DNA of 64,000 bases from an uncultured Rhodocyclaceae bacterium. GTDB lineage: Bacteria > Pseudomonadota > Gammaproteobacteria > Burkholderiales > Rhodocyclaceae. The stretch covers positions 1 to 64,000 of the forward strand of contig CAJQTY010000004.1 in assembly GCA_907163075.1 (NCBI GenBank). The letters are read 5' to 3'. The position numbers and the translations under genes are program-made. Positions 41,427-49,176 of this stretch are shown here, one piece after another. The stretch's first letter is position 1; every line of letters starts with the position of its first letter. The notes under the pieces were generated by a model. It did not search any database and was not told the origin of the DNA. It worked only from the letters and a program-made list of their open reading frames with translations.

Positions 41427-42386
41427 TCAGTTCCCCGCCAGTATGCTCATGACCGCCATGCGGACGGCGATGCCGAAGGTGACTTGCGGCAGGATGACGG
41501 CCTGCGGTCCGTCGGCGACTTCGGAGGCGATTTCGACGCCGCGGTTCATCGGCCCCGGGTGCATGACGATGGCGTCCGGCTTGGCGAGGGCGAGTGTTTT
41601 GGGGGTCAGCCCGTAGCATTTGAAGTATTCGCGGGCCGAGGGCAAGAGGGTGCCGTTCATGCGTTCGTTTTGCAGGCGCAGCATGATGACGACGTCGCAG
41701 CCCCGGAGTCCGTCGTGCAGGTCGTGGCAGACGCGCACGCCCATTTTTTCGAGGGCGGTGGGCAGCAGGGTCTGCGGGCCAACGGCGCGCACTTCGGCGA
41801 CGCCCATGGTGTTCAGGGCGAGGATGTCGGAGCGGGCGACGCGCGAGTGGAGGATGTCGCCGACGATGGCCACCGTCAGGTGGGCGAAGTCTTTCTTGTA
41901 GTGGCGGATGGTGTACATGTCGAGCAGGCCTTGCGTCGGGTGGGCGTGCCGTCCGTCGCCGGCGTTGACGACGCGGACGTCGCTGCGGCCGGTGCGGCGC
42001 AGGTGGTCGACGATGAGGTAGGGGGCGCCAGAGGCGGCGTGGCGGACGACGAACATGTCGGCGTGCATGGCGACGAGGTTGTCGATGGTGTCGAGCAGGG
42101 TTTCGCCCTTGGCCGTGGAGGAGCGGGCGACGTCGAGGTTGATGACGTCGGCGGAGAGGCGTTTGGCGGCGATTTCGAAGGTGGTCCGGGTACGCGTGGA
42201 GTTTTCGAAGAAGAGGTTGAAGACGCTTTTGCCGCGCAGGAGGGGGACTTTCTTGACGTCGCGGTCGGAGACTTCGAGGAAGCTGGAGGCGGTGTCGAGG
42301 ATGCGCGTGAGGATGTCGCGCGAGAGGCCGTCGATCGAGAGGAGGTGGGCCAGTTCGCCGTGGGCGTTGAGTTGGGGGTTAGGCAT
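41427..42386 (-). CDS. pyrB: Aspartate carbamoyltransferase catalytic subunit
   Basis: First committed step of pyrimidine synthesis: carbamoyl phosphate plus aspartate. The 319-residue chain shows the carbamoyl phosphate loop [13 protein letters not shown], the 80s loop [21 protein letters not shown], and the aspartate-binding MLRLQNERM and [10 protein letters not shown]. Having both aspartate motifs contrasts with the second carbamoyltransferase at 44268-45269. It overlaps pyrR by 8 bases and precedes pyrC', the usual pyrRBC' operon. Confidence 0.95.
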
Positions 42387-42885
42387 GCTCGGGGTTCCTC
42401 CAGTGGAAGTGCCCGCTGGCGTCGGTTTCGAGGACGAGTTCTTCGGCCGGGTCGAGTTTGGGGTACCACGTGCAGAATTCGGCGTAGATCGGCAGTTCGC
42501 GTCCGCCGCGGTCGGCGAGGACGGCCAGTTTGATGCTGGCCGGCCGGCCGTAGTCGAACAGTTCGTTGATGGCGGCGCGGGTAGTGCGTCCGGTGAACAG
42601 GACGTCGTCGATGAGGATCAGCGAGCGGCCTTCGACGTCGAAGGGAATGGAGGTGGGTTTGATCTGGGGATGCAGGCCTTTTTCGCCGAAGTCGTCGCGG
42701 TAGAAGGAGACGTTGATGAGGCCGATTTCGCCAGGCAGGGCGAGCCGTTCGTTGAGGCGCCGGGCGATCCAGGCGCCGCCGCTGTGGATGCCGACGAGCA
42801 GGGTGTTCGCTTGCAGTTGTGGGCGGATGAGTTCGGCCAGTGCGGCGCATTGCGCTTCGGCGTCAGGGAGCGGTGTTGGGAGCAT
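42379..42885 (-). CDS. pyrR: PyrR-type uracil phosphoribosyltransferase / regulator
   Basis: A 168-residue PRTase with the PRPP-binding loop [17 protein letters not shown] and the preceding [12 protein letters not shown]. In Firmicutes PyrR attenuates pyr transcription by binding mRNA; in proteobacteria it is mainly thought of as a uracil phosphoribosyltransferase. It is the first gene of the operon, behind the TATAAT box at 43021-43026. I see no convincing anti-terminator/terminator pair in the 135-base leader. Confidence 0.92.
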
Positions 42886-42927
42886 GGGGTCAGGGTCCGT
42901 GGTGGGGGCAGAGGTGTCTTCAAGCGT

Positions 42928-43002
42928 TCATTCAGGCAACCGTTCAGCCTCGCGGTCAAGAAAACATTGCAGAATGATCTGCGCGGCCAGCGCGTCGCGG
43001 TG
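42928..43002 (-). pseudogene. ruvX: C-terminal remnant of ruvX (Holliday junction resolvase-like)
   Basis: A 24-residue tail, reading RDALAAQIILQCFLDRE and then to a stop, fits the C-terminus of RuvX/YqgF, whose gene normally lies immediately upstream of pyrR in betaproteobacteria. Upstream of it the reading frame has no RuvX similarity and instead contains the pyr promoter and the terminator of allE. The body of ruvX seems to have been lost here, probably when the purine cluster was placed next to pyrR. A complete ruvX may exist elsewhere. Confidence 0.55.
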
Positions 43003-43020
43003 CTGGCGCGCATGTTGCGC

Positions 43021-43049
43021 ATTATAACCGCTTGCACGCCGGCCAAGAA
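43021..43049 (-). promoter_or_regulatory. Predicted sigma-70 promoter of pyrR-pyrB-pyrC'
   Basis: On the minus strand, TTCTTG (43049-43044), a 17-base spacer, then a perfect TATAAT (43026-43021). It lies between the allE terminator and pyrR and would give a leader of about 130 bases. Confidence 0.6.
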
Positions 43050-43159: not shown

Positions 43160-43960
43160 CTATAGATCCTGCGTGTAATCGCGATTCACATCTTTGTACA
43201 GGAGGTAGGACGATTTTTCCCAACCCATGGCGTAGTAGAACTGCGGGCAATAGGGCGCCATGTAGATGAAGTCATCCTTCTGCACTTCGATCAAGTCGTT
43301 GTTCAGGAAATACAGTCCGCATCCGTCGACCATGTACAGTCCGTGCTCCATGACATGGGCTTCAACGTAGGGGAAATAGACGCCGGCATCGAAAATCTGG
43401 AAATTGATGCCCATGTCGAAACCCATCGACTCGTACGGCGTCAGGTGCTTTTCCCAGTAGGTGTCGCACGGCTCGCCCGGCACATCGCTTTCGTGCGCGA
43501 AGATCGGCGCCGGAATCGCGATGCCGGCCACTTCTTCGTAACGACGGCGGATCCAGACGACGCGGCAGCGCTCGCTACCGTTGTTGACGAACTCGTAGGC
43601 GCAGTGGGGGGGCAGCCAGGTAAAGCTGCCGCGCACCATCTTTTGCAGCGAACCGCCGGCATAGCTGAACTGGAGCTCGCCTTCGAGAACGAAGAAGAAC
43701 TGCTCGAAGTCTTCGTCACGCGGCCTTACCGTACAGCCGTTGGGGTGTACCCACAGTTCGTGTTCGACGAACTTGGCGCCATGCTGCGGCGTCGCCAGAA
43801 CCTGGGCCTGGACGCCCTTGAATCCCGGCAAGTTGTGTTCGACCCGGTTGGCGCGCGGGAAGATCATATAGCTTCCCGGCTTGTTGACGCAGCGGCAACG
43901 CGAGGTGATATCGGCATCGCCGAGAATCGACATTCCGTTTGGAAGTTTTCCTGGTAGCAT
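43160..43960 (-). CDS. allE: (S)-ureidoglycine aminohydrolase
   Basis: Mn2+-dependent bicupin that hydrolyses (S)-ureidoglycine to (S)-ureidoglycolate and ammonia in allantoin breakdown. Of 266 residues, two cupin domains (about 50-140 and 180-250) are visible; the C-terminal cupin has the metal ligands E200, H202, H206 in EAHVMEHG and Q240 in CPQFYY, as in plant and E. coli enzymes. The start at 43960 is set by AGGAGA 9 bases upstream; a 33-codon upstream extension has no ribosome site. It is followed by its own terminator. It faces the same way as the carbamoyltransferase gene 307 bases upstream, but the hairpin between suggests separate transcripts. Confidence 0.92.
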   Translation of the reverse strand: MLPGKLPNGMSILGDADITSRCRCVNKPGSYMIFPRANRVEHNLPGFKGVQAQVLATPQHGAKFVEHELWVHPNGCTVRPRDEDFEQFFFVLEGELQFSYAGGSLQKMVRGSFTWLPPHCAYEFVNNGSERCRVVWIRRRYEEVAGIAIPAPIFAHESDVPGEPCDTYWEKHLTPYESMGFDMGINFQIFDAGVYFPYVEAHVMEHGLYMVDGCGLYFLNNDLIEVQKDDFIYMAPYCPQFYYAMGWEKSSYLLYKDVNRDYTQDL

Positions 43961-44267: not shown

Positions 44268-45269
44268 TTACATTCCCAGCATGGAAAGAATCAGCGCCAT
44301 GCGAATCGAGACGCTGTACGAAACGGCTTCGAAATAAAGCTGGTGCGGCGAGTTGTCGATGCGCAGATCCATTTCGCCGGCGCGGCGCGGCAGCGTGTGC
44401 GTGACGTAGATCGTCCGGTTCTGATCCTTGGCCACCTTGTCCAGCATTTCGAAGCGCAGGAAGTAGTCGTCCATGATCGCCTTGAACGCTTCGGCGGCGG
44501 CGCCCTTCGGTGCGCTGCAACCCGGTAAGTACACCATGTCCATCCCGGAGCACAGTTCGTTGAACGAATCCTGCGAGCAGTCGAGGACTTCTTCGACCTT
44601 GATGCCGCGAGCGGCAATCTTGGCCATCACTTCTTCCGGAATGCGGCGTTCCTTGGTGCTCGCCAGGTAGACCTTGGCGCCCAGGCGGGCCAGACCCTGG
44701 GCCATCGAGTGACCGGTACGCGCCTCGATCAGGTCCGGACTTGCCACGCAGACCTTCAGGCCTTCGATACGGCCGTAGGTGCGGTACAGCGTGTAAAGGT
44801 CAAGCAAGGCCTGCGTCGGATGCTCCCAGTGGCCCCAGCCGCAGTTGATCACCGGTACTTCGGAATAAGGCGCCGCTTCACGCGCAGCGACATCGTCAAA
44901 GTGCCGCATGGCGATGATATTGGCGTACTTGGAGACGACCTTGATCATGTCCGGGAGGCTCTCTTCCTTCGCTGCGGCGGAAGTTACCAGCGGGTTGGCT
45001 TCGCTGATCACGGCGCCGCCCAGGCGGTGCATGGCCGTTTCAAAACTCATGCGGGTGCGGGTGCTGGGCTGGAAGAAAAGCGTTGAAATCACATTGCCGG
45101 TGGCCAAAGGCACAACGGAACGATTCCATGGCTCCAACTGCAACGCCAGTTCAAACAGGCCATACAACTGGTCGTCGCTCAGATCATTGATCGATAAAAG
45201 ACTTTTTCCCTCGAAACCAATGGCGTTGACTACTGACTTCAAGGTGCGAATCTTGGCACTATTACTCAT
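44268..45269 (-). CDS. Aspartate-carbamoyltransferase-like enzyme of purine catabolism, substrate unknown
   Basis: A 333-residue carbamoyltransferase of the ATCase/OTCase fold. The carbamoyl phosphate site is intact: FFQPSTRTRMSFE (STRTR 69-73), an ATCase-like 80s loop SAAAKEES (Ser97, Lys101, Glu103), HPTQ at 150-153 and THTLPRRAGE near the end. But where ATCase has the aspartate-binding RLQ/RVQ motif after the hydrophobic strand, this reads MVYLPGCSAPKG, so aspartate is unlikely to be the substrate. pyrB, with all motifs, is present 2 kb away. The neighbours allE, allA and a carbamate kinase gene point to release of carbamoyl phosphate from a ureido compound such as ureidoglycine, ureidoglycolate or oxalurate. 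It is not the FdrA-type oxamate carbamoyltransferase of E. coli. GGAGAT precedes the ATG. Confidence 0.82.
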   Translation of the reverse strand: MSNSAKIRTLKSVVNAIGFEGKSLLSINDLSDDQLYGLFELALQLEPWNRSVVPLATGNVISTLFFQPSTRTRMSFETAMHRLGGAVISEANPLVTSAAAKEESLPDMIKVVSKYANIIAMRHFDDVAAREAAPYSEVPVINCGWGHWEHPTQALLDLYTLYRTYGRIEGLKVCVASPDLIEARTGHSMAQGLARLGAKVYLASTKERRIPEEVMAKIAARGIKVEEVLDCSQDSFNELCSGMDMVYLPGCSAPKGAAAEAFKAIMDDYFLRFEMLDKVAKDQNRTIYVTHTLPRRAGEMDLRIDNSPHQLYFEAVSYSVSIRMALILSMLGM

Positions 45270-45493
45270 GATCTATCTCCGTTTAAGTATGAATGAAACT
45301 TTAAAAACTGTTACCAAACAAACAATCTGTCGCTCAATAAAAGTCAAAAAAACAACCGGGTGTCGACGGCATTGCCACTGCTGACAACGATCAAACGGCG
45401 GAAAACGGCGAATATCCTCGTCCGGAAAATCCGCCTGCCTCGTGGCGTCGATCAAGCGTTGGACGAACTATAGGCGAGGCCAGGCGAGTCCGG

Positions 45494-45526
45494 CATCGAG
45501 ATCACTTATGACTGGCATAAGACGTT
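45494..45526 (+). promoter_or_regulatory. Left copy of a 33-base inverted repeat containing a palindromic operator
   Basis: The 33-base unit contains the perfect 17-base palindrome CTTATG-ACTGG-CATAAG (45505-45521). It recurs in inverse orientation at 45648-45680 with one mismatch. A palindrome of this size in a divergent promoter region suggests a dimeric transcription factor site; the LysR protein encoded at 46806-47711 is one candidate to bind it. Confidence 0.65.
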
Positions 45527-45647
45527 TGCTCCTGCCCGGCTGCCGCGCTGGCGGGCGCGCTGATCGCGTAGCGGGATTTGCAAGGCTTTTCCGGTATGGA
45601 ACGCGGCGAACCCGCAGCGGGCGACTGGTCGTGCCGACCGCAGGCCG

Positions 45648-45680
45648 AACGTCTTATGCCAGTCATAAGTGATGTCGATG
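45648..45680 (-). promoter_or_regulatory. Right copy of the 33-base inverted repeat with palindromic operator
   Basis: Inverse copy of 45494-45526, 32 of 33 bases identical. Its palindrome (45653-45669) is centred 148 bases from the left one, about 14 helical turns, placing both on the same DNA face. It ends 69 bases before the carbamate kinase start. A short inverted-repeat element (MITE-like) is the other reading. Confidence 0.65.
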
Positions 45681-45749
45681 TCCAGTTCCCTTGGCCACGC
45701 CTATAGTTTTGTCAGCCCATTCGATAAACGTCACGCAGGAGATAATCAG

Positions 45750-46721
45750 ATGACCAAGAACACCACGATTCCACGCCGCCTTATCATTGCCGTCGGCGGT
45801 AACGCACTACAAGTCGCCGGATCCAAGGGAACGCCGCACGAGCAGATGGACGTTGCCGCCGCTACCGCGCGCGCGCTGTTGCCTATTTTTCTGCTCGACA
45901 ACGAACTGCTGATCACGCACGGCAACGGCCCCGCCGTCGGCAAGCTGCTGCTGCGCAACGCCTTTTCCCGCGACCGCGTCGTTCCGATGTCGCTCGACAT
46001 CCTGGTTGCCGACACTCAGGGCGCTACCGGCTACATTCTGGCGCAGGCCTTCGAAAACGCATTGCGCGAAGTCGGCAGTCAACGCGCCGCCGTCGGCCTG
46101 GTGTCGCAAGTCGAAGTGGACCCCAAGGATCCCGGCTTCCAGAACCCGACCAAGCCGATCGGCTATTTTTTCAACGAGGCGGACGCCAAGGCCCTGATGG
46201 CCGAAGTCGGCTGGAAGATGAAGGAAGATGCCGGGCGCGGATGGCGGGTCGTCGTCGCTTCGCCACAGCCGAAACACATTTGCGACATTTCGCTGGTCGA
46301 CGCCGTGATGAAACAGGGATCGATCGTCATTTCGGGCGGCGGCGGCGGCATCCCGGTGGTGCGCGATGAAATCGGCCGCCGCCATGGCGTCGAGGCGGTC
46401 ATCGACAAGGATCTGACCAGCGCCAAGATGGCCAACATCCTGGGCATCGACACGATGATGATCCTGACCGCCGTTCCCCGCGTGGCGATCAATTTTGGCA
46501 AGCCCAACCAGCAGGAACTCGACTGGGTAACGCTTTCCGAAGTCCGCAAACATCACGCCGATGGGCAGTTCCCCGCCGGCAGCATGGGCCCCAAGATCGA
46601 GGCCGCCATCAAGTTCATCGAGGGCGGCGGCAAACGGGCGATCATCGCCAGCCTCGAGGATGCGCTTCCTGCACTGCGCGGTGAAACCGGCACCCACGTC
46701 GTCCCGGACGGCGAGCTTTGA
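45750..46721 (+). CDS. arcC: Carbamate kinase
   Basis: Turns carbamoyl phosphate plus ADP into ATP, CO2 and ammonia. The 323-residue protein has the amino-acid-kinase start IIAVGGNAL, the loop THGNGPAVGKLL, SGGGGGIPVV near residue 205 and the MGPKIEAAIKFIE block. I start at 45750, where AGGAGATA lies upstream; the longer reading from 45669 runs into the inverted repeat. No arginine deiminase or ornithine carbamoyltransferase gene is near, and the divergent neighbour is a non-aspartate carbamoyltransferase, so it most likely serves purine catabolism as in the E. coli all cluster. A strong terminator follows. Confidence 0.93.
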   Translation: MTKNTTIPRRLIIAVGGNALQVAGSKGTPHEQMDVAAATARALLPIFLLDNELLITHGNGPAVGKLLLRNAFSRDRVVPMSLDILVADTQGATGYILAQAFENALREVGSQRAAVGLVSQVEVDPKDPGFQNPTKPIGYFFNEADAKALMAEVGWKMKEDAGRGWRVVVASPQPKHICDISLVDAVMKQGSIVISGGGGGIPVVRDEIGRRHGVEAVIDKDLTSAKMANILGIDTMMILTAVPRVAINFGKPNQQELDWVTLSEVRKHHADGQFPAGSMGPKIEAAIKFIEGGGKRAIIASLEDALPALRGETGTHVVPDGEL

Positions 46722-46805: not shown

Positions 46806-47711
46806 TCAGCCGCCGCGCCCCCAGTAATCGGGATCGCCGAACGCGGTGTTCAACTGATCGACAAACAAACGGAGGCGTAGCGGCAGGTGTCGGCGTTGCG
46901 GGAATACCGCGTAGATGCCCATGGGCGGCGCTGCGAATTCGTCCAGGACCGGAATAAGGCGACCGCTTTCGATGTCGCGGCCAACCTCCCACAGCGAGCG
47001 CCAAGCCAGCCCCTTGCCGGCGAGCGCCCACTCGTGAAGAACCACGCCGTCATTGCACTCGAAGTTGCCGAGCACCTTGATGCCGACCACTTTGCCGCCC
47101 GGCGTATCGCGCAAGACCCAGGCGCGCTGCTGCCCGAGGGAAAGACAGTTGTGCGCGTGCAGATCCGCCGGCGTGAGCGGTATTCCATGACGTTCGAGAT
47201 AAGCCGGACTGGCAACCACCGCACGCCGCATTTCGCCGAGCTTTCTTCGAATCAGGCTCGAATCAGCCATTTCGCCGATGCGCACCGCGCAATCGACGCC
47301 TTCATTGAGCAGATCGACCAGTCTGTCGGTCAGATCGAGACTAACCCGCACTTCAGGGTTGTTGTCCATGAACGCCGCCACCAGCGGCGCCACGTGCTGG
47401 CGCCCGAAACCGGCCGGTGCCGACACCTTGAGATGGCCGCAGGCCCGGATTCCGCCGATGGAAACCGAGGTTTCCGCGTTGGCCAGGTCATTCAGGATGC
47501 GCTGGCAGTCTTCCAGAAACGACTGCCCTTCGAAGGTCAGTGACAGCTTGCGCGTCGTGCGCAACAGCAGTTTCACGCCGAGCCGGCCCTCCAGCGCGTC
47601 GATCCGGCGCCCGATCACGGCCGGCGTGATGCCTTCAAGCTGAGCCGCCGCCGCCAGGCTGCCACGCGTCGCGGCATTGACAAAGGACTCGATCTGCTTG
47701 ATCTGGTCCAT
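46806..47711 (-). CDS. LysR-family transcriptional regulator
   Basis: A 301-residue LysR regulator. The N-terminal winged helix-turn-helix (about residues 1-60, FVNAATRGSLAAAAQLEGIT then IGRRIDALEGRLGVKLLLR) is followed by the periplasmic-binding-like effector domain. It belongs to the CrgA/AaeR-like subgroup by its VSAPAGFGRQHVAPLVAAF segment. It starts 8 bases after the allA stop on the same strand, so it is co-transcribed with allA and is likely to regulate the purine genes, perhaps through the palindromes upstream of the carbamate kinase gene. The effector is unknown. Confidence 0.88.
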   Translation of the reverse strand: MDQIKQIESFVNAATRGSLAAAAQLEGITPAVIGRRIDALEGRLGVKLLLRTTRKLSLTFEGQSFLEDCQRILNDLANAETSVSIGGIRACGHLKVSAPAGFGRQHVAPLVAAFMDNNPEVRVSLDLTDRLVDLLNEGVDCAVRIGEMADSSLIRRKLGEMRRAVVASPAYLERHGIPLTPADLHAHNCLSLGQQRAWVLRDTPGGKVVGIKVLGNFECNDGVVLHEWALAGKGLAWRSLWEVGRDIESGRLIPVLDEFAAPPMGIYAVFPQRRHLPLRLRLFVDQLNTAFGDPDYWGRGG

Positions 47712-47718
47712 GGCGCGA

Positions 47719-48222
47719 TCAGAGCACCGAGGCCGTCGGTATCATGGCACCCTGCTCGAAAAAGCGCTCTTGGCAATTGTTGCCCGGCCCGGCCCGGTCA
47801 ATGACCAGGAAGTCGCTAACCTCGTCAACGGCCAGTAAAGGATGGTGCCAGACGCCTCGCGCGTAATTGACACCCTGCGCGCCGCTGGCGAGAAAGACGC
47901 GAAGGTCATCGACGCCGAGGTTTTCTCCCTTCTTGGCAACGGCCACCAGGTACGGACGGCCGCTCATCGGGACAAAGCACTGGCTGCCGAGCGGATGCCT
48001 TTCCATCATGCCGATTTCGAATGGGAACTGACGCGCCTGCCCGCGAAAAATACTGACAATCGGATGCCCCTGTTCATCAACCTCGATCCGCATGAGGTCG
48101 TGATATCGCTCTGTATTTCCGCCGTTGATCGTGTAATGCGTGGCCCAGTCCGCGGCTTCGATGACATCGCCGAAGTCGGCGAAGGCTTCCTTGCTGAGCA
48201 ATTCGATTTTGAGCTGTTTCAT
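47719..48222 (-). CDS. allA: Ureidoglycolate lyase
   Basis: Splits (S)-ureidoglycolate to glyoxylate and urea. The 167-residue length and the blocks HYTINGGNTERYHDL, FRGQARQFPFEIGMMERHPLGSQ, VPMSGRPYLVAVA, and GVNYARGVWHHPLLAV are those of AllA, with the catalytic/metal region in the last two. The start at 48222 has GGGAAAG upstream; an open frame extends 75 codons further without similarity. Together with AllE this gives the path ureidoglycine, ureidoglycolate, glyoxylate. The urea may feed urease elsewhere; glyoxylate can be used by the malate synthase encoded at 52973-54571. Confidence 0.94.
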   Translation of the reverse strand: MKQLKIELLSKEAFADFGDVIEAADWATHYTINGGNTERYHDLMRIEVDEQGHPIVSIFRGQARQFPFEIGMMERHPLGSQCFVPMSGRPYLVAVAKKGENLGVDDLRVFLASGAQGVNYARGVWHHPLLAVDEVSDFLVIDRAGPGNNCQERFFEQGAMIPTASVL

Positions 48223-48465: not shown

Positions 48466-48485
48466 CATTCCATTACACACAACTC
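48466..48485 (+). repeat. IS4-element terminal inverted repeat (transposase 3' side)
   Basis: CATTCCATTACACACAACTC, exact inverse of 52477-52496. Confidence 0.9.
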
Positions 48486-48867
48486 ATATAGCATTGATTG
48501 ACCGCATATGTTCGACCCCTTCGACAAAATCCCTGATGCGCGCAAAGCCAAGCCAAAGCGTCTTGACGCCGGGTTCGCCGTCACTCTTTCGAGCGAGGAA
48601 GCCACCGAGCATGGCGATTCGCCGGATGACCTCGCGCAGCGTGGGCGTTGTTTTCGGGATGGGTTTCTTGCCCAGGATGTAGGCTCCTTTCCATTCCTCG
48701 TCAGTGAAGAGGGCCGTCGCGGCGAGGTCCGGATGGGTTCGTCCCAGGCGAACCCATCGCGCCAGTCGCCACGACACGACCATGTACACGGCCAAGGCCA
48801 GTTCAAGCTTGCCGACACTGCCGAGTTGCAAGGCTTCGATGCGGCAACCGTTCTTGAACACGTTGAA
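48484..48867 (-). pseudogene. IS4-family transposase, separated C-terminal part
   Basis: Begins NVFKNGCRIEALQLGS and continues through VSWRLARWVRLGRTHPDL and ARKSDGEPGVKTLW to the stop, the usual IS4-family C-terminus. The Lys of the family's Y-2-R-3-E-6-K signature is here (FKNG), while Tyr, Arg and Glu are in the other fragment at 51377-52369. The transposase can only be whole if the insert between them is removed. Confidence 0.85.
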
Positions 48868-49176
48868 CAACTGGGCGACATACTGCCCGGCAACATCTCT
48901 CCAGTGAGGTAGTCGTCTGGTATCGCTTTCATCCGTTCGCGGGTGAGCGCCTTGCGGTGGTCAGGCGACATCAGGTCCATGACGAGCCGTGTTATGTCGT
49001 GCGACGGCTTGATGGAACGACGGTATCAATTCCCGCCTGGATGACTGAACTCGCCGCCGGCGAGGTGCAGTTAACCCGTGAGCCGTGCCTGCCTCTTTTT
49101 GTATTGGTTGCGCTCCGCCGCGTGGTATCGACATTCTTATCCTTGTCGGCCTGTTCAGGCCTTACAGGAGAGCGCG

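What the first reader, a model, noticed from the sequence alone, without database searches (positions are those of the whole stretch)
44268..46721. Purine-linked carbamoyltransferase without an aspartate site, paired with carbamate kinase
The 333-aa protein keeps all carbamoyl phosphate motifs of ATCase (STRTR, a Ser/Lys/Glu 80s loop, HPTQ) but has PGCSAPKG where the aspartate-binding RLQ motif should be; the bona fide PyrB in the same window keeps RLQ. It is divergent from a carbamate kinase gene and flanked by allE and allA. This suggests a phosphorolytic ATP-yielding route from ureidoglycine, ureidoglycolate or oxalurate that does not use the FdrA-type enzyme known from E. coli. A ureidoglycine-acting transcarbamylase has been proposed in the literature, from memory, so it is rare rather than certainly new.
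Basis: partly seen in the sequence, partly recalled or inferred. Interest (0 to 1): 0.72.

Follow-up and report, generated by a model that had tools for sequence, protein, structure and literature searches.

The report
Allantoate-splitting ureidoglycine carbamoyltransferase gene cluster
The odd enzyme is a member of a family described in 2013 that splits allantoate, a purine breakdown product, with phosphate so that a partner kinase can make ATP; the gene set looks acquired from elsewhere, but the kind of enzyme is already known.

Summary
The 333-aa protein (44268-45269, minus) keeps the carbamoyl-phosphate motifs of ATCase, but Gly250 and Ser252 stand where ATCase has the aspartate-site Arg229 and Gln231; the PyrB of the same window keeps RLQ. 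It is not new in kind. It is 65.8% identical (219 of 333) to the protein read here as Rubrobacter xylanophilus Rxyl_2847, has the same PGCSAPKG, and lies in its clade (99/97) inside a 44-row family at 100/100. Rxyl_2847 was assayed in 2013 as ureidoglycine carbamoyltransferase (UGTCase): allantoate + Pi gives ureidoglycine + carbamoyl phosphate. Among 54 related loci, AllE or a ureidoglycine transaminase lies within 8 kb in 42, never both; carbamate kinase in 41; allantoicase in 0. The cluster looks horizontally acquired: 1 of 199 sampled genomes of the family has the gene, nearest relatives are Chloroflexota (up to 80%), and it adjoins a cut ruvX. The genome also encodes allantoicase and an FdrA-type operon, so this is probably an extra route. 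Activity of this protein is untested.

The parts
44268..45269 (-). ureidoglycine carbamoyltransferase (UGTCase; allantoate phosphorolysis), 333 aa; Gly250-Cys251-Ser252 in place of ATCase Arg229-Val230-Gln231
43160..43960 (-). AllE, (S)-ureidoglycine aminohydrolase, 266 aa from the likely ATG at 43960 (mechanical ORF runs to 44059)
   Evidence: TIGR03214 241.8 bits over cut-off 200; PDB 1rc6 and 4e2q are homologues; E-x-H-x3-H and a Gln shared with E. coli AllE (that these bind the metal is recalled)
45750..46721 (+). carbamate kinase, 323 aa from the likely ATG at 45750; divergent from the TCase
   Evidence: NF009007 328.6 bits over cut-off 266; arcC TIGR00746 355.2 bits, just under its cut-off 358.25; PDB 1e19 E 8.4e-87
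46806..47711 (-). LysR-type regulator, candidate regulator of the cluster
   Evidence: no single NCBIfam regulator model reached its cut-off among the 25 shown
47719..48222 (-). AllA, ureidoglycolate lyase, likely ATG at 48222
   Evidence: PF04115 197.3 bits; NF009932 195.9 over cut-off 160, profile begins at residue 76 of the mechanical ORF
45505..45521 (.). perfect dyad CTTATG-N5-CATAAG in the divergent intergenic region; candidate operator
   Evidence: this and 45653-45669 are the only matches in the window with fewer than 3 mismatches; the pattern was read from this site
45653..45669 (.). second perfect dyad CTTATG-N5-CATAAG, about 80 bp upstream of the likely kinase ATG
   Evidence: both dyads lie in an inverted repeat 45466-45526/45648-45708, 61 nt, 85% complementary
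42904..43038 (-). remnant of ruvX (only its last 25 to 41 codons match); left edge of the acquired segment
   Evidence: DNA match of pyrC-pyrB-pyrR to 5 same-genus genomes stops at 42867-42870; only the C-terminal part of their next gene matches the window; that gene is RuvX in the one relative scanned (TIGR00250 124.4 bits, cut-off 43.25)
48484..48870 (-). C-terminal fragment of an IS4/Tn5-type transposase; right edge of the acquired segment

Best explanation
The protein is a UGTCase that works in the catabolic direction: allantoate + phosphate gives (S)-ureidoglycine + carbamoyl phosphate. The divergent carbamate kinase then makes ATP, NH3 and CO2 from carbamoyl phosphate and ADP; AllE deaminates ureidoglycine to ureidoglycolate; AllA splits that into glyoxylate and urea. 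It is an ATCase fold in which the shared Arg184 would hold the carboxylate of allantoate, while the Arg/Gln pair that in ATCase holds the aspartate side (roles recalled) is replaced by small neutral Gly/Ser, making room for the neutral ureido group. Shown here: closeness to the assayed enzyme, motif identity, clade, fold, gene neighbours. Inferred: activity of this protein, its direction, the binding mode, regulation by the LysR protein and the dyads, and use as a second route beside allantoicase.
For: 65.8% identity over 333 aligned residues to the protein taken for Rxyl_2847, same PGCSAPKG and HTLP, with the Thr at position 298 as the 2015 review numbers it. Rxyl_2847 was assayed: 5.9 umol/min/mg from allantoate + phosphate at 60 C; at 37 C activity with phosphate or arsenate and none detectable without them. 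Tree: 44 UGTC rows one clade 100/100, window plus Rxyl in a 15-row subclade 99/97, both PyrB rows outside. Neighbours within 8 kb in 54 related loci: AllE 32, ureidoglycine-glyoxylate transaminase 10, either 42 (28 of the 32 with at least 4.9 kb on both sides), never both; carbamate kinase 41; allantoicase 0. The same families were found in 0 of 26 archaeal ATCase loci. The transaminase of L088 matches PDB 3nnk at E 6.7e-163. In 46 genomes (46 of the 54 loci), 0 have AllC over its cut-off, 17 have no AllC-family match at E 0.001, and none of those 17 has an allantoicase match.
Against: No assay of this protein. The own genome has an allantoicase (454.9 bits, cut-off 277.9) and an M20 enzyme far under the AllC cut-off (261 of 597.75) but over two NCBIfam subfamily cut-offs named allantoate amidohydrolase, so allantoate has other possible fates here. 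No allantoinase is in the cluster; the likely one, PuuE, is on another contig, and no AllB passes its cut-off. 29 of 46 genomes have some AllC-family match and 3 of 46 allantoicase. Of 54 loci, 7 carry an M20 carbamoylase within 8 kb, 12 show neither AllE nor the transaminase (8 of these have short flanks; L056, L057, L058 and L070 do not), and 13 no carbamate kinase. The assayed enzyme is 66%, not 100%, identical.
Confidence: 0.88

Rival explanations
1. A transcarbamylase of the same fold acting on another purine ureide (ureidoglycolate or oxalurate).
For: AllA and AllE sit beside it, so ureidoglycolate is probably made nearby; some relatives sit beside FdrA or YlbE genes (8 and 10 of 54 loci within 8 kb).
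Against: The closest assayed homologue acts on allantoate. Where FdrA/YlbE are present they would be the oxalurate enzyme, and the TCase is kept as well. The recurrent neighbour is a consumer of ureidoglycine, the product of allantoate phosphorolysis.
Confidence: 0.06
2. A second aspartate or ornithine carbamoyltransferase.
For: The best NCBIfam match is asp_carb_tr; the nearest solved sequences and folds are ATCases.
Against: Below the ATCase cut-off; Arg229 and Gln231 replaced in 44 of 44 rows; separate clade 100/100; the genome already has PyrB and two near-identical ornithine carbamoyltransferases.
Confidence: 0.02
3. A decayed or non-functional passenger on a mobile segment.
For: Neighbouring ruvX and transposase are fragments; 1 of 199 sampled family genomes carries the gene.
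Against: Open full-length frames for all five genes; the carbamoyl-phosphate and Arg167 positions are kept, except that the Ser80 column is Ala98 with Ser97 beside it; a coherent set of genes.
Confidence: 0.04

Closest known systems
UGTCase Rxyl_2847 of Rubrobacter xylanophilus (Barba et al. 2013, PMC4016543)
   Same: clade, 65.8% identity, PGCSAPKG and HTLP motifs, adjacent carbamate kinase, purine context
   Different: here AllE and AllA accompany it and the kinase is divergent; in R. xylanophilus an asparaginase-like gene follows, and the paper suggested spontaneous decay of ureidoglycine or its deamination by that protein
Aspartate carbamoyltransferase (PyrB)
   Same: fold (Foldseek best hit 1ml4, TM 0.83/0.89), carbamoyl-phosphate motifs, Arg167
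   Different: no Arg229/Gln231, no Pro266 (Thr292), Gln67 for Glu50
E. coli AllFGH (FdrA/YlbE/YlbF) oxamic transcarbamylase with a catabolic carbamate kinase (PMC11326118, abstract start and passages seen)
   Same: phosphorolysis of a purine ureide to carbamoyl phosphate
   Different: other proteins and a different step (oxalurate); FdrA and YlbE relatives are elsewhere in this genome
YgeW knotted carbamoyltransferase
   Same: superfamily, purine context; this genome has one
   Different: 27% identity, different clade, HCLP instead of HTLP and no Arg aligned with ATCase Arg167
AllC allantoate amidohydrolase / allantoicase
   Same: same substrate, allantoate
   Different: hydrolytic, no carbamoyl phosphate, unrelated families

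Membership tests
UGTCase (pseudo-ATCase with H[ST]LP and GX[SC]) | STRT and HPTQ carbamoyl-phosphate motifs | tested here: met
UGTCase (pseudo-ATCase with H[ST]LP and GX[SC]) | H[ST]LP and GX[SC] in place of HP[LG]P and RXQ | tested here: met
   HTLP and GCS; the protein taken for Rxyl_2847 has the same
UGTCase (pseudo-ATCase with H[ST]LP and GX[SC]) | clade with the assayed enzyme | tested here: met
   99/97 subclade, 100/100 family clade
UGTCase (pseudo-ATCase with H[ST]LP and GX[SC]) | allantoate phosphorolysis activity | not testable with these tools
   needs an enzyme assay
ATCase | Arg229 and Gln231 for aspartate | tested here: not met
   Gly250, Ser252
ATCase | placement with PyrB and score over the curated cut-off | tested here: not met
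OTCase / YgeW / AOTCase | HCLP and family cut-offs | tested here: not met
   HTLP; 109.4 bits against 280.85 for OTCase, 27 against 500 for YgeW, 63.9 against 288 for AOTCase
FdrA-type oxamic transcarbamylase | FdrA/YlbE/YlbF genes in the cluster | tested here: not met
   none found among window ORFs; FdrA and YlbE relatives elsewhere in the genome

The most novel reading that the evidence does not exclude
UGTCase is not a Rubrobacter oddity but the core of a mobile, energy-saving allantoate module found in at least seven phyla, in which phosphorolysis often stands in for AllC and allantoicase and the product ureidoglycine is passed to one of two interchangeable sinks, AllE or ureidoglycine-glyoxylate transaminase; this bacterium took the module up from a Chloroflexota-like donor, and in Anaerolineae a second, uncharacterised transcarbamylase with a ketol-acid-reductoisomerase-family protein may harvest the second carbamoyl group.
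Probability: 0.45. Interest if true: 0.55.

Novelty: new member of a known kind. Interest (0 to 1): 0.33.

Why it matters
In the papers searched, only one UGTCase was seen to have been assayed. The family signature, the complete replacement of the two aspartate residues and the pairing with ureidoglycine consumers would let many proteins that pass for aspartate carbamoyltransferases be renamed, among them those of Sutterella, Neisseria, Cardiobacterium and Peptidiphaga (that these live in gut and mouth is recalled), and it points to ATP gain from allantoin that needs no oxygen.

Tried and rejected
ATCase or OTCase paralogue: rejected by clade, cut-offs and replaced residues. The ornithine carbamoyltransferase beside PuuE on C3 looked at first like another purine-linked enzyme; it is a near-copy of the C1 one, with HCLP and SMG, so dropped. 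Relatives on plasmids: no match at 1e-60 in 72,556 plasmid records. Sole-route idea for this genome: rejected, because allantoicase is present. The idea that FdrA-type enzyme is absent: rejected at genome level. The ORF L134:15485-16621 is spurious; the opposite frame is an asparaginase. G+C content does not mark the cluster clearly: 0.56-0.64 in its bins, 0.64-0.70 just left of it, 0.59 further left. The order-wide search at 1e-20 mostly returned other carbamoyltransferases: 156 of 300 genomes matched, but only the own genome and G235 have a match with E below 1e-60.

Rows dropped before counts: the 72-row tree used 41 of the 54 loci L044-L097 (13 near-duplicates left out) and 17 chosen ATCase loci (8 of the 26 archaeal ones, 9 of the order's); the AllC and allantoicase searches used 46 of the 54 loci; the structure alignment used 38 of the 54 loci plus the window; 5 of 12 matching same-genus genomes were inspected beyond pyrR. 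A distant class-V aminotransferase in L051 (27%, 107 bits) was not counted as a transaminase hit (limit 150 bits). YgeY-like M20 genes of Anaerolineae were not counted as carbamoylases.

Full report
Observation. The listed ORFs exist. The 333-aa protein at 44268-45269 (-) has both OTCace domains and scores 221.5 bits for ATCase against a cut-off of 236.95, while the window PyrB at 41427-42386 scores 292.8. The order is allE(-) TCase(-) | carbamate kinase(+) lysR(-) allA(-). Likely starts read from the sequence: AllE ATG 43960, kinase ATG 45750, AllA ATG 48222.

What it is. Aligned against E. coli ATCase (44 family rows, 19 ATCase rows), the family keeps S52-T55, K84, R105, H134 and R167 in 44 of 44 and Q137 in 43 of 44; Ser80 is Ser in 34 and Ala in 10 (Ala here, with Ser97 next to it). 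It has Gly for R229 (44 of 44), Ser for Q231 (44 of 44), Ser/Thr for P266 (29/15) and Gln for E50 (44 of 44); the ATCases have R, Q, P and E in 19 of 19. In a 72-row tree the family is one clade at 100/100 and the window protein lies in a 15-row subclade (99/97) with Rubrobacter; the window PyrB lies outside. Caveats given by the tool: win_PyrB and the outgroup rows are long branches, and the ATCase rows are not one side of a branch. The AlphaFold2 model (39 sequences, mean pLDDT 89.4, pTM 0.89) has the PALA-liganded ATCase 1ml4 as best solved match (TM 0.83/0.89).

The known enzyme. Barba et al. 2013 (PMC4016543, parts 1-4 of 7 read) assayed Rxyl_2847: allantoate + Pi to ureidoglycine + carbamoyl phosphate. 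That protein has PGCSAPKG and is 219/333 = 65.8% identical to the window protein. The paper reports mismatches between its cloned gene and the genome record. Its Table 1 gives H[ST]LP and GX[SC] to 'pseudo-ATCase 2', yet the Figure 5 legend puts R. xylanophilus in group 1; the sequence fits row 2, so the row labels may be exchanged.

Neighbours. In the 54 UGTC loci L044-L097 of one capped genome-collection scan (best 80 kept of 469 relatives; contexts), within 8 kb: AllE 32, ureidoglycine-glyoxylate transaminase 10, carbamate kinase 41, AllB 33, PuuE 6, asparaginase-like 14, FdrA 8, YlbE 10, allantoicase 0, M20 carbamoylase 7. Of 32 loci with at least 4.9 kb on each side, 28 have AllE or the transaminase; L056, L057, L058 and L070 have neither. 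No locus has both. None of these families was found in the 26 archaeal loci of the same scan, whose only reference match was PyrB; this is a weak control because archaea may lack the pathway anyway. The transaminase of L088 is closest to PDB 3nnk, ureidoglycine-glyoxylate aminotransferase (E 6.7e-163), and 3isl, PucG. So two unrelated enzymes that share ureidoglycine as substrate alternate next to the TCase, which points to ureidoglycine as its product. In 46 of these genomes AllC is over cut-off in 0, 17 have no AllC-family match, 3 have allantoicase and none of the 17 does. Completeness of these genomes was not shown and many are MAGs, and the AllC cut-off is passed by only 1 of 14 control genomes, so these absences are soft.

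In this genome. An NCS1-family transporter (allantoin-permease-like, under all cut-offs) and PuuE (528.5 bits, over cut-off) lie on C3; allantoicase on C1; FdrA, YlbE and a carbamate kinase on C1; YgeW, YgeY and a dihydropyrimidinase on C1; an M20 enzyme related to AllC on C1. The window cluster is therefore probably an added, energy-saving branch, not the only one.

Origin. The TCase is 80% identical to two Chloroflexi MAG proteins and 77-78% to Anaerolineae ones; AllE is 68-77% identical to those of L044, L045, L046 and L052; but the kinase is closest, among loci fetched, to kinases of the Acidiferrobacteraceae-type UGTC operons (62-65%), so the cluster may be assembled from two sources. 1 of 199 sampled family genomes and 2 of 300 sampled order genomes carry a match below E 1e-60, the own genome counted in both. 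In 5 of 5 same-genus genomes inspected the DNA match ends at pyrR (window 42867-42870), and of their next gene only the C-terminal 25 to 41 codons remain in the window; in the one relative scanned that gene is RuvX. A transposase fragment and a serine recombinase lie on the other side.

Regulation, inferred. Two perfect CTTATG-N5-CATAAG dyads lie between the divergent genes; the other seven matches in the window have 3 mismatches, and the total of 9 is what shuffles give (mean 9.45). The chance of the two perfect ones was not computed, and the pattern was read from the site. They lie in a 61-nt inverted repeat.

Literature. Searches. The name UGTCase or ureidoglycine transcarbamylase is listed for the 2013 paper and two reviews only. 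PMC4581275, PMC6022934, PMC12625717, PMC11326118, PMC5270733, PMC3793230 and PMC10163214 were seen as passages; PMC12949509, PMC12535856 and PMC11822668 as listings. None of the passages seen describes the AllE or transaminase pairing of this enzyme; most subscription journals are not held, so this is no claim that it is unpublished.

Verdict. A new, apparently horizontally acquired member of the UGTCase family; observation right, substrate guess off by one step.

Noticed in passing
L044:15594-17714, L045, L052, L055; apart in L053: A second carbamoyltransferase (SLRT or STRT, HPCQ, HCLP; nearest to AOTCase but under every cut-off listed for the two scanned) sits next to a ketol-acid-reductoisomerase-family gene (in L044 over the ilvC cut-off) near AllE in Chloroflexota and a spirochaete that also carry the UGTCase; it might act on oxalurate.
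   Followed up: partly
L088, L066, L093 (Acidiferrobacteraceae and kin): Gene order PuuE - UGTCase - asparaginase-like - carbamate kinase - ureidoglycine transaminase - YlbE - FdrA could release both carbamoyl groups of allantoate as carbamoyl phosphate.
   Followed up: partly
L095, L097 (Planctomycetota): Clusters with AllB, FdrA, YlbE, AllE, UGTCase, AllD and carbamate kinase, another possible two-step phosphorolytic set.
   Followed up: no
L134:15512-16591 (-), L088:11015-12031, L054:11947-12933: An asparaginase-type gene recurs near UGTCase (14 of 54 loci within 8 kb) and, in the own genome, beside PuuE on C3; its role in the pathway is unknown.
   Followed up: no
L136:7749-8684 (-) and L134:16819-17754 (+): Two near-identical ornithine carbamoyltransferase genes in the genome, one of them beside PuuE on another contig.
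   Followed up: no
PMC4016543, Table 1 and Figure 5 legend: Motif row labels 1 and 2 of the pseudo-ATCase groups seem exchanged relative to the sequence taken for R. xylanophilus.
   Followed up: partly
window 42904-43038: ruvX is cut: only C-terminal codons remain next to the acquired cluster; whether another copy exists in the genome was not tested.
   Followed up: partly
L059, L060, L067, L068, L069, L077, L081, L082, L083, L085: The order AllE - UGTCase - YfcC-like transporter - AllB - carbamate kinase is shared by these ten loci (Sutterella, Cardiobacteriaceae, Pseudomonas delhiensis, Neisseriaceae, Saezia), so the YfcC-like protein may carry allantoin or a product.
   Followed up: no
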